Origin: Planctomycetales bacterium 10988
Lineage (GTDB): Bacteria > Planctomycetota > Planctomycetia > Pirellulales > Pb10988
Direction of reading: 5' to 3'
Assembly: GCA_009664345.1 (NCBI GenBank)
Contig: CP043547.1
Span: forward strand, 1,798,001-1,862,000
DNA: 64,000 bases
Below, piece by piece: positions 22,441 through 24,773 of this stretch. Position numbers and translations under genes: made by a program. The notes under the pieces are model-generated. The model did no database searches, was not told where the DNA came from, and saw only the letters and a program-made list of their open reading frames with translations. Position 1 is the first letter of the stretch. Every line of letters starts with the position of its first letter.

Positions 22441-22478
22441 AAAGACCTCTGTAGAATTTCTATAGGGGTCTTTTCTTT
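22441..22478. terminator. Bidirectional terminator between clpB and the DHPS-like gene
   Basis: Bases 22441-22455 pair with 22459-22473 (15 bp with a few G-T pairs, 3-base loop), followed by TTTTCTTTT on the plus strand and preceded by A-rich sequence that gives U-rich RNA on the minus strand. The stem includes the stop codon of the minus-strand gene. Confidence 0.75.
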
Positions 22479-23890
22479 TGTTTCTTGATAGCGCGTTGTT
22501 CAATCTTTTCTTGGCGTTTCTTTTCTAGAAAGCTTTGTTCTTCTTCCGTTAAGAAACCCCAGGTAAGGGCTTGATCCTGAGAGTAGCTTTTTCCTAACGT
22601 TCGGGCAGTCACCGCTTTTGCCATTTCATAGCCTAAATAAAAGGCGTGACCTGCATCAATTGTTACCTTCGTCTTTTTCAAGACTTGTTCAAAGAGTTCA
22701 AAAGGGTCTTCGTGTGAAAGATTCATTTCTGAATTGATAACATAAAGTAAACCTTGTGATAGAAAGAGACGAAAATTTTTATCAGTAATTTGTTCTGCTA
22801 GTTTATTGATTTCTTCTGTTGATAACTCTCGTTGTTTAGCATCGCGAAGTAAAAGAAGTTCCGCGGTTAAATGTTTAGGAAGATTTTGATGATGAATAGC
22901 GTAATAAACCATCCGGCGGGCAATGTCACATTCTTTGACACTTGATCGCGCCCAGTTGATAACCTCGGTTGTTAAGATACTATCGATTTGCCATTCCTGA
23001 CAAATTCCTAACAATAGAAAATTGACTCCACTAGAATCGACTTCTGACAGTTCTGACAGATTGCCGATTCCCATCATGATGTCCGTTTCCGGCCATTGTT
23101 TTCTTGCTTTTTGATAACGGATTAAACTTTCCGCAAAGCCAAAGCCAATCGGTTCTAGAATGGGATCGATGCGATGAAGTATTTTTTTTGTTTCTAAATA
23201 GTCAACGGTTTCTTCTAGACTTTTCCAATCTTCGGGTGAGTCGGGAATGGCAACGACTTCGACTTCCCAATCTTGGGCAAATTCACGATTGGAAGAATTG
23301 ACCGAAAGGACGAGTTCCGCCCCGGCTTGGGTGGCGAGTTCGATTTCTTGGGGATTGAGGCTATCGACCGAGACCCGATGGCCGTCGTCTCGCAAGGCCT
23401 GCACCACTTCGCCAACACCTGCCCAAGTCACACCGGGATCGCAACCGACATCGATCAGGTTTGCCCCTTCGGCCCGCCATCTTTTGGCTTGTTTGAGAAT
23501 CTCTGGAATCGTCCAACTGGCGGCATGATTGATCTCCGCGAGGATTTCAATGTCGTACGGGCCGTAATGTTTGAGACGCTCGGACTTTTTGCCAAAATAT
23601 TCCGGCAGATCACGGTAGTCTCCAGGCCCGCGGACTACCGGAATTTTTAGCTGTTCTTCAAGCGTGGAAAGCGAACCTCGACAACGACCCGGCAGCATGA
23701 GATGGGTGACATTGGCGGAAAGTTCCAACCGAGGAGCCACCCAATCGGCCGTCATCAAGGCCGCCACTTTGACAGGCAGGACTTGCAACGAGTAATCAAA
23801 ATTCGCCTGCGGAGCGAGTTCTTTCAGGAGATTTGCCAGGGAATCCGCGGCGAGCTTTCCCGTAACGAAATGCCAATGAGGCCGACTCAT
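22460..23890 (-). CDS. Dihydropteroate-synthase-like pterin-binding protein
   Basis: 476 residues from the ATG at 23890 (MSRPHWHFVTGKLAA); about 100 in-frame codons upstream overlap the SDR gene and are not conserved-looking. The central part resembles the pterin-binding TIM barrel of dihydropteroate synthase: GANLIDVGCDPG, GHRVSVDSLNPQEIE, ELVLSVNSSN, DIMMGIGNLSEL. The N-terminal part is a separate domain and the C-terminal 130 residues are lysine-rich and helical. Such DHPS-related proteins (archaeal and planctomycete type) are associated with tetrahydromethanopterin or folate metabolism, but the reaction is not proven. The gene is compositionally mosaic: the 3' half (about 22460-23200) is far more AT-rich than the 5' half. 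It follows the SDR gene by 19 bases. Confidence 0.85.
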   Translation of the reverse strand: MSRPHWHFVTGKLAADSLANLLKELAPQANFDYSLQVLPVKVAALMTADWVAPRLELSANVTHLMLPGRCRGSLSTLEEQLKIPVVRGPGDYRDLPEYFGKKSERLKHYGPYDIEILAEINHAASWTIPEILKQAKRWRAEGANLIDVGCDPGVTWAGVGEVVQALRDDGHRVSVDSLNPQEIELATQAGAELVLSVNSSNREFAQDWEVEVVAIPDSPEDWKSLEETVDYLETKKILHRIDPILEPIGFGFAESLIRYQKARKQWPETDIMMGIGNLSELSEVDSSGVNFLLLGICQEWQIDSILTTEVINWARSSVKECDIARRMVYYAIHHQNLPKHLTAELLLLRDAKQRELSTEEINKLAEQITDKNFRLFLSQGLLYVINSEMNLSHEDPFELFEQVLKKTKVTIDAGHAFYLGYEMAKAVTARTLGKSYSQDQALTWGFLTEEEQSFLEKKRQEKIEQRAIKKQKKRPL

Positions 23891-23909
23891 GCCGGGGTGT
23901 TCGCCTTGG

Positions 23910-24773
23910 TTAGGGTTTGCCGTTGGTGACAGGTTGACTGGCCATTTGCCCGTTGATACCCGCTGGATTGAAGCCCCCGTTGAGCCGGAGAATCTGCCCA
24001 TTGACGAAGCTTGCTTGCGGGGAAACAAGGAAACAAGCAGCATTGGCAACTTCTTCAGGAAGCCCCCAGCGGCCGAGCATCGACTCGCGTTTGGCCCGAT
24101 CTTGCCAGACCTCCGAGGTTGTTTCTCCCCAAGCGGTTTTGATCCAACCGGGGGCAATGCAATTGACGCGGACTTCTGGAGCGAGCGAAAGGGCAAGGCT
24201 TCGCGTGAAGGACATAATCGCCCCTTTGGCCATCGCGTAGAGTTCTCCGCTATCGCCAGCCATGCCGAATTCCGCTTGATCCCAGCCGATATTGATCATG
24301 GCTCCTTGGCCGTTTTCTTTCATCCGCTTGCCGACTTCGCGGCTGATCCGGACCGTCGAAGCCACATCGACCTCAAGCAGGGTTTGGAGTTTTTGATCGA
24401 AGGACCATTCGGTAGCATCGCCGGTCAGGAGGTCCGCTCCGGCATTATTCACCCAAATATCAATGGATTCCCGCCATTCAAAAGCAGTTTCCACGAAATC
24501 ATCTTGTTCGGCGACGTGGGTGAAATCGGCTAAAACCGCTTTGGTTTCCAGCCCTAGTTGTTGAATTTGAGAAGCTACCTTGGCGAGAGGCTCCGCTGAT
24601 TTACGGGCATGGACTAAAACCGAAGCCCCAGAACGAGCGAAGGCCAGGGCAACCGCTCTGCCGATTCCACTCGAAGAACCAGTAACAACAGCGGTTTGAC
24701 CAAGCAAAGGCCGGGCAGGGTCCCAAGCGGGTCTCAACGTCGTTTTTCTTTTGCAATCATCAGGAGTTTTCAT
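23910..24773 (-). CDS. SDR-family reductase, candidate pteridine reductase
   Basis: 287 residues of the classical short-chain dehydrogenase/reductase fold. The cofactor loop is TGSSSGIG (31-38), the structural NNAG is at 109-112, and the catalytic YxxxK is Y179-K183 (YAMAK). The position of the usual catalytic Ser is not Ser: the strand reads NIGWDQAEFG with Asp165 fourteen residues before the Tyr. Pteridine reductases (PTR1, FolM) have Asp in the Ser position, thirteen before Tyr, and the flanking YAMAKGA and TRSLALSLAPEVRVN also resemble them. The neighbour downstream is a pterin-binding DHPS-like protein, 19 bases away, so a role in pterin reduction is plausible. A generic 3-oxoacyl-type reductase remains possible. 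AGGA precedes the ATG at 24773. Confidence 0.88.
   Translation of the reverse strand: MKTPDDCKRKTTLRPAWDPARPLLGQTAVVTGSSSGIGRAVALAFARSGASVLVHARKSAEPLAKVASQIQQLGLETKAVLADFTHVAEQDDFVETAFEWRESIDIWVNNAGADLLTGDATEWSFDQKLQTLLEVDVASTVRISREVGKRMKENGQGAMINIGWDQAEFGMAGDSGELYAMAKGAIMSFTRSLALSLAPEVRVNCIAPGWIKTAWGETTSEVWQDRAKRESMLGRWGLPEEVANAACFLVSPQASFVNGQILRLNGGFNPAGINGQMASQPVTNGKP

What the first reader, a model, noticed from the sequence alone, without database searches (positions are those of the whole stretch)
22460..24773. SDR with an Asp-type active site next to a pterin-binding DHPS-like gene
Seen: the SDR has TGSSSGIG, NNAG and YAMAK, but no Ser precedes the Tyr where a classical SDR has its catalytic Ser; instead Asp165 sits in NIGWDQ, 14 residues before Tyr179. 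Known: PTR1 and FolM pteridine reductases have Asp in this position, 13 before Tyr, and PTR1-like neighbours of the YxxxK motif (MAKGA, LAP-x-VRVN) recur here. The next gene, 19 bases downstream, is a DHPS-like pterin-binding protein. Inference: this pair may be a pterin reduction and conjugation module, possibly for a tetrahydromethanopterin-type cofactor. The one-residue offset is the main doubt.
Basis: partly seen in the sequence, partly recalled or inferred. Interest (0 to 1): 0.6.

Follow-up and report, generated by a model that had tools for sequence, protein, structure and literature searches.

The report
Candidate planctomycete dihydromethanopterin reductase (unusual SDR)
A gene of a very common enzyme family, but with three of its four usual catalytic residues replaced, travels with the genes that make the one-carbon carrier tetrahydromethanopterin in planctomycete bacteria, and is a good candidate for the final reductase of that pathway, which has been missing in this group.

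Summary
The pair is real: an SDR (23910-24773, -) and, 19 bp downstream, a DHPS-fold protein (22460-23890, -; DUF6513 + Pterin_bind + DUF4346). The H4MPT inference is strongly supported. In 294 Planctomycetota genomes the SDR occurs in 27 of 28 with mch and in 0 of 266 without. In named planctomycete genomes it heads operons SDR-DHPSL-pabB-pabA-DUF447-beta-RFAP synthase, or sits beside mch, an MptN-like ligase, PTPS and PCD. In three proteobacterial plasmids the gene in the same position, just before DHPSL-DUF447, is an AfpA/DmrB-type flavoprotein, the enzyme class that makes H4MPT from dihydromethanopterin. That gene is reported missing from planctomycetes (PMC5020050), and I found none. Best reading: the SDR is a non-homologous dihydromethanopterin reductase.

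The PTR1-type active site is not supported. Across 105 orthologues Trp164 fills the Ser/Asp position, Asp165 is invariant one residue on, the tetrad Asn is Asp136 (104/105), and Tyr179 is Phe in 103. Only Lys183 remains of N-S-Y-K. The window's Tyr is the exception. Loss of Tyr fits an enzyme doing only dihydro-to-tetrahydro reduction, which in PTR1 uses water rather than Tyr. No activity has been shown; pathway membership is near certain, the exact step inferred.

The parts
23910..24773 (-). SDR gene, 287 aa (stop codon included); proposed dihydromethanopterin reductase
   Evidence: ORF and translation; Pfam adh_short_C2; AlphaFold2 mean pLDDT 93.5, FabG-type fold; orthologues in 27 of 28 mch-positive planctomycete genomes
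24660..24683 (-). TGSSSGIG (residues 31-38), dinucleotide-binding glycine motif
   Evidence: translation; Gly32, Gly36, Gly38 invariant in 105 orthologues
24366..24368 (-). Asp136, at the position of the fourth tetrad residue (Asn in FabG and PTR1)
   Evidence: Asp in 104 and Glu in 1 of 105 orthologues; alignment with FabG, PTR1 and paralogues
24276..24287 (-). Gly163-Trp164-Asp165-Gln166 signature; Trp164 at the catalytic Ser/Asp position, Asp165 proposed acid or water-activating residue
   Evidence: GWD invariant in 105 orthologues; Trp164 aligns with FabG Ser and PTR1/FolM Asp
24225..24239 (-). Tyr179-Ala-Met-Ala-Lys183; position 179 is Phe in nearly all orthologues, Lys183 invariant
   Evidence: Phe in 103, Tyr in 2 (window and L082); Lys in 105 of 105
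23891..23909 (.). 19-bp gap between the two genes; likely one transcript
   Evidence: coordinates; SDR directly before DHPSL in 29 of the 80 best named loci
22460..23890 (-). DHPS-like pterin-binding gene (DHPSL), 476 aa; proposed to join the pterin pyrophosphate to beta-RFAP
   Evidence: TIGR00284, DUF6513, Pterin_bind, DUF4346; AlphaFold2 pLDDT 84.1, best PDB matches are dihydropteroate synthases, E 1e-9
23624..23875 (-). DUF6513 N-terminal domain (residues 6-89)
   Evidence: Pfam E 2.5e-22
23282..23506 (-). Pterin_bind region of the barrel (residues 129-203)
   Evidence: Pfam E 3.3e-8
22574..22732 (-). PterinBD-DUF4346 C-terminal domain (residues 387-439)
   Evidence: Pfam E 4.2e-7

Best explanation
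The SDR is the dihydromethanopterin reductase of Planctomycetota, non-homologous to DmrA, DmrB/AfpA and archaeal DmrX. The neighbouring DHPS-fold protein joins 6-hydroxymethyl-7,8-dihydropterin pyrophosphate to beta-RFAP. After the side chain is completed, the SDR would pass hydride from NADPH to C6 of the 7,8-dihydropterin, with a proton arriving at N5 from water activated by Asp165, giving tetrahydromethanopterin. Lys183 and the Gly motif hold the cofactor, Asp136 replaces the usual Asn partner of the Lys, and Trp164 and other invariant Trp may stack on the pterin or aryl ring. Shown: co-occurrence, operon linkage, slot equivalence with AfpA/DmrB, conserved altered active site, SDR fold. Inferred: substrate, cofactor, direction and each residue's role.
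For: Of 294 phylum genomes: mch 28, SDR 27 (all inside the mch set), 0 SDR in 266 mch-less genomes (Fisher p about 2e-37, ignoring shared ancestry). In 179 class genomes: 163 both, 7 neither, 5 mch only, 4 SDR only, with both lost in near-complete genomes of two families. Operon SDR-DHPSL-pabB-pabA-DUF447-beta-RFAP synthase in about ten named genomes; mch-MptN-like-CitG-(PTPS)-SDR-(PCD)-DHPSL-pabB in others. Azoarcus, Thiodictyon and Phyllobacterium have an AfpA/DmrB-type flavoprotein directly before DHPSL-DUF447 (TIGR02700 86-98 bits). In the 29 planctomycetes scanned the best TIGR02700 match is 43 bits, most matches covering only the second half of the profile, and 20 of 29 lack any DHFR_1. 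PMC5020050 states that the Afp gene is not recognised in planctomycete genomes; PMC6193120 places all planctomycete DHFR homologues of its tree with DfrA, none with DmrA. PTR1's dihydro-to-tetrahydro step uses water, not Tyr (PMC8996148, PMC1618733), which fits Tyr-to-Phe.
Against: No biochemical or genetic data. G185 has mch and DHPSL but no SDR; five mch-positive MAGs also lack it. G334 and G448 keep a family member with GWD-F-K but have no detected mch or DHPSL. Position alone cannot tell the last reduction from another reductive step of H4MPT synthesis. PF00186 was not checked against a real DmrA, and proteobacterial Afp proteins themselves fall below the curated TIGR02700 cut-off. mtdC, fae and beta-RFAP synthase were not searched for in the window's own genome.
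Confidence: 0.62

Rival explanations
1. The SDR acts at another reductive step of H4MPT synthesis, such as the opening and reduction of the ribofuranosyl ring of the coupled intermediate to the deoxyribitol side chain.
For: Same operon and co-occurrence evidence; it lies next to the DHPS-like and beta-RFAP synthase genes. That such a step exists and has no assigned enzyme is from my own knowledge of the pathway, not tested here.
Against: That step is needed in every H4MPT organism, whereas the 80 best family loci are all planctomycete and the best plasmid matches are ordinary SDRs at 39% or less. The planctomycete-specific gap documented in the literature is the final reductase (PMC5020050).
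Confidence: 0.17
2. A PTR1/FolM-type pteridine reductase with an Asp-Tyr-Lys triad.
For: Asp165 invariant; the window copy has Tyr179 and Lys183.
Against: Asp165 is one residue past the PTR1 Asp position, which holds invariant Trp164; Tyr is Phe in 103 of 105 orthologues. Family profile: PTR1 81 bits and FolM 64, against FabG 149 and all 11 paralogues compared above PTR1.
Confidence: 0.06
3. A dihydrofolate reductase substitute serving folate in organisms without folA.
For: The window genome and 19 of the other 28 DHPSL-bearing genomes lack DHFR_1.
Against: DHFR_1 is about as common in mch-positive (9/28) as in mch-negative (96/266) planctomycetes; genomes without DHFR_1 and without mch also lack the SDR.
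Confidence: 0.04
4. A catalytically weak or inactive SDR that serves as a partner or regulator of the DHPS-like enzyme or of cofactor binding.
For: Three of four catalytic tetrad residues are replaced; adjacent to DHPSL in many genomes.
Against: Gly motif, NNAG, Lys183 and a new invariant set (D114, D136, W164, D165, five Trp in all) point to selection on an active site; in some genomes it lies far from DHPSL (for example G048, G181, G238).
Confidence: 0.06
5. A lineage-specific methylene-H4MPT dehydrogenase or other catabolic H4MPT enzyme.
For: Co-occurs with mch.
Against: Planctomycetes already have MtdC for that reaction (PMC3505017); the SDR is linked mainly to biosynthetic genes.
Confidence: 0.05

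Closest known systems
DmrB/AfpA (TIGR02700/TIGR02699), FMN dihydromethanopterin reductase
   Same: Gene slot directly before DHPSL-DUF447 in H4MPT operons; proposed reaction
   Different: Flavoprotein fold against NADPH-type SDR fold; no homology
DmrA of Methylobacterium extorquens (DHFR homologue; PMC6193120)
   Same: Proposed reaction; NADPH-type donor; no flavin
   Different: DHFR fold against SDR fold
PTR1 (Leishmania) and FolM (E. coli), SDR pteridine reductases
   Same: SDR fold, catalytic Lys, an Asp near the end of beta-5, pterin context
   Different: Trp at their Asp position, Asp one residue later, Phe for Tyr, Asp for the Asn of PTR1; low profile scores
FabG-type classical SDRs (2p68, 3ftp)
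   Same: Nearest in sequence profile and fold
   Different: Ser, Tyr and Asn of the catalytic tetrad are all replaced in this family
TIGR00284 DHPS-like proteins / dihydropteroate synthase
   Same: The neighbour has the DHPS-type barrel and Pterin_bind motif
   Different: Extra DUF6513 and DUF4346 domains; below the TIGR00284 curated cut-off

Membership tests
SDR superfamily | Rossmann fold with TGxxxGxG, NNAG and an active-site Lys | tested here: met
   Pfam PF13561 5.7e-49; motifs conserved; FabG-type fold
Classical SDR (catalytic N-S-Y-K tetrad) | Asn, Ser, Tyr and Lys at the tetrad positions | tested here: not met
   Asp136, Trp164, Phe179 (103/105), Lys183
PTR1/FolM pteridine reductases | Asp at the Ser position, 13 residues before Tyr | tested here: not met
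   Trp164 at that column; Asp165 is 14 before
PTR1/FolM pteridine reductases | Catalytic Tyr | tested here: not met
   Phe in 103 of 105; Tyr only in the window copy and L082
PTR1/FolM pteridine reductases | Closer in sequence to PTR1/FolM than to other SDRs | tested here: not met
   Profile bits FabG 149, PTR1 81, FolM 64; the tree leaves PTR1/FolM on long, unsure branches
DmrA (DHFR fold) or DmrB/AfpA (flavoprotein fold) | Sequence match to DHFR_1 or Flavoprotein families | tested here: not met
   Only SDR-type families match
Dihydromethanopterin reductase (function) | NAD(P)H-dependent reduction of dihydromethanopterin | not testable with these tools
   Supported only by genomic context
H4MPT biosynthesis gene | Co-occurs and clusters with H4MPT genes | tested here: met
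   27/28 against 0/266; operons
DHPS-like TIGR00284 (neighbour gene) | Score above the curated cut-off | tested here: not met
   173 bits against 257, though E 6.6e-51; fold closest to DHPS

The most novel reading that the evidence does not exclude
A further, independently evolved class of dihydromethanopterin reductase: an SDR that lost the Asn, Ser and Tyr of its catalytic tetrad in favour of a D-W(D)-F-K site suited to reducing only the 5,6 C=N bond of dihydropterins.
Probability: 0.58. Interest if true: 0.72.

Novelty: new variant of a known kind. Interest (0 to 1): 0.64.

Why it matters
Planctomycetes are central to the debate on how H4MPT-linked one-carbon chemistry spread between Archaea and Bacteria, and their dihydromethanopterin reductase is a published gap (PMC5020050). 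A single testable gene that fills it would complete the pathway, show another non-homologous solution to the same step, and add an SDR with an almost wholly replaced catalytic tetrad. It would also give a phylum-wide marker gene that general family models see only as a generic SDR or FabG-like reductase.

Tried and rejected
PTR1/FolM membership: rejected by residue columns and profile scores. Folate DHFR substitute: rejected because DHFR absence does not track the SDR. Unrelated housekeeping SDR sitting there by chance: rejected by co-occurrence and conserved linkage. DmrB/AfpA elsewhere in planctomycete genomes: TIGR02700 gave only short matches of 43 bits or less, mostly in the second half of the profile. 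G319 first looked mch-positive and SDR-negative; the profile search recovered its SDR. The structural overlay on PTR1 was not possible because coordinates are not returned. Literature searches for a planctomycete SDR in the H4MPT pathway and for DUF6513 found nothing in the held library. Searching plasmids with the SDR gave, among the rows listed, only ordinary SDRs at 39% identity or less.

Full report
OBSERVATION. The window holds, on the minus strand, an SDR gene (23910-24773, 287 aa) followed 19 bp later by a 476-aa protein with DUF6513, Pterin_bind and DUF4346 domains (22460-23890). The pair stands between a clpB-like gene and a gene transcribed the other way; no further pathway gene was recognised beside it in this window.

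CO-OCCURRENCE. The window's own genome has mch, methenyl-H4MPT cyclohydrolase. In 294 Planctomycetota genomes, mch was found in 28, DHPSL in 29 and close SDR homologues (E <= 1e-50) in 27. Every SDR genome has mch; none of the 266 mch-less genomes has the SDR. The one mch genome without the SDR is G185; G167 has a divergent DHPSL (36%) but neither mch nor SDR. The positives come from seven family labels, so this is not one clade alone, though Fisher's p of 2e-37 ignores shared ancestry. A denser sample of the class (179 genomes) gave 163 with both, 7 with neither, 5 with mch only (all MAG-like assemblies, 68-95% complete) and 4 with SDR only (after the profile search recovered the SDR of G319). 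Both genes are absent together from near-complete genomes of two families (f3: G167, G322; f96: G392, G412, G440). The profile separates the family sharply: in the 16 genomes searched, members score at least 340 bits and every other SDR at most 177.

NEIGHBOURHOOD. SDR and DHPSL are adjacent, or parted only by a PCD gene, in about half of the 29 first-round genomes. Some loci read mch - MptN-like ATP-grasp - CitG-like - (PTPS) - SDR - (PCD) - DHPSL - pabB; identities come from Pfam and NCBIfam (mch over its curated cut-off, MptN 259 bits and beta-RFAP synthase 120 bits below theirs). Among the 80 best named loci from public genomes, all planctomycete by title, 37 have DHPSL in the locus, 29 directly after the SDR, and about ten show the full run SDR - DHPSL - pabB - pabA - DUF447 - beta-RFAP synthase. 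These are the genes for pABA, RFAP and pterin coupling. In other genomes (for example G048, G181, G238) the SDR lies elsewhere and a PCD gene stands next to DHPSL.

THE SLOT. DHPSL also occurs on proteobacterial plasmids. In Azoarcus, Thiodictyon and Phyllobacterium the gene directly before DHPSL-DUF447 is a flavoprotein whose best NCBIfam match is TIGR02700, dihydromethanopterin reductase (acceptor), followed by AfpA (86-98 bits, below the curated cut-off). The two Azospirillum loci have another gene there. So in planctomycetes the SDR stands where the dihydromethanopterin reductase stands in several Proteobacteria. In the 29 planctomycete genomes TIGR02700 gave at best 43 bits, most matches covering only the second half of the profile. 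PMC5020050 says that the Afp gene is not recognised in planctomycete genomes and that DmrA is its non-homologous substitute in Methylobacterium. In PMC6193120 all planctomycete DHFR homologues of the tree group with DfrA, none with DmrA. Twenty of the 29 genomes have no DHFR_1 at all.

NOT FOLATE. DHFR_1 occurs in 9 of 28 mch-positive and 96 of 266 mch-negative genomes. The SDR therefore does not stand in for folA: many genomes lack both folA and the SDR.

ACTIVE SITE. In 105 orthologues (two further rows were truncated) Gly163-Trp164-Asp165 and Lys183 are invariant, position 136 (Asn in FabG and PTR1) is Asp in 104, and position 179 is Phe in 103; Tyr is found only in the window copy and L082. 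Aligned with FabG, PTR1 and FolM, Trp164 falls in the Ser/Asp column and Asp165 one residue later. So three of the four N-S-Y-K residues are replaced; the window protein lies inside the family tree (family support 98/99), so its Tyr is probably a reversion. AlphaFold2 gives a confident SDR fold (pLDDT 93.5) whose listed PDB matches are FabG, hydroxysteroid dehydrogenase and similar enzymes. Profile scores put PTR1 (81 bits) and FolM (64) below FabG and all 11 window-genome paralogues compared. The PTR1 letters used were recalled and then confirmed against PDB 1e92; FolM and FabG came from the E. coli K-12 record.

MECHANISM (inferred). In PTR1 the first reduction uses an Asp-Tyr proton relay; the second, dihydro to tetrahydro, takes hydride from the nicotinamide and a proton from activated water, as postulated for DHFR (PMC8996148, PMC1618733). 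An SDR that only meets 7,8-dihydropterins could do without the Tyr and keep an acid to activate water, here Asp165, with Lys183 still holding the cofactor. No acidic residue is conserved at the end of beta-2, and residues 57-59 (often R-R/K-S) align with PTR1's 2'-phosphate pocket His38-Arg39-Ser40, so NADPH is the likely donor.

DHPSL. Its model (pLDDT 84.1) matches dihydropteroate synthases best (E 1e-9); coupling of the pterin to beta-RFAP is the likely role, inferred from fold and context.

STRENGTH. Membership of H4MPT biosynthesis is close to certain (about 0.95). That the step is the last reduction rests on slot equivalence, the documented gap and the fit of the active site (about 0.6). 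Exceptions remain: G185 and five MAGs with mch but no SDR, and G334/G448, which keep GWD-F-K family members without detected mch or DHPSL.

Noticed in passing
L199 (G448), L200 (G334), L224: One genus keeps an SDR of this family with GWD-F-K intact but NNAG changed to LCAG, with no detected mch or DHPSL; in G334 it still sits directly before pabB. A relic or a changed role.
   Followed up: partly
L042, L044, L047, L049, L157, L164, L178, L179: A pterin-4a-carbinolamine dehydratase gene lies between SDR and DHPSL, and next to DHPSL where the SDR has moved away; its role in H4MPT synthesis is unexplained.
   Followed up: partly
L030/L058 (G167): A divergent DHPSL (36%) with pabB downstream in a complete genome without mch or the SDR.
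   Followed up: no
window 24237-24239: The window SDR is one of only two of 105 orthologues with Tyr rather than Phe at position 179, probably a reversion.
   Followed up: partly
SDR residues 164, 210, 215, 223, 236 (window 23910-24773): Five Trp residues are invariant across the family, unusual for an SDR; possible pterin or aryl stacking.
   Followed up: no
L198 (G319): An SDR orthologue with a 25-residue insertion just before beta-5, the likely reason it fell below the single-sequence cut-off.
   Followed up: no
L042, L044, L047, L049, L051, L057; L229, L232: A CitG-like gene (PF01874) clusters with mch in planctomycetes, and a triphosphoribosyl-dephospho-CoA synthase gene does so in Proteobacteria, suggesting a conserved role in H4MPT or methanofuran metabolism.
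   Followed up: no
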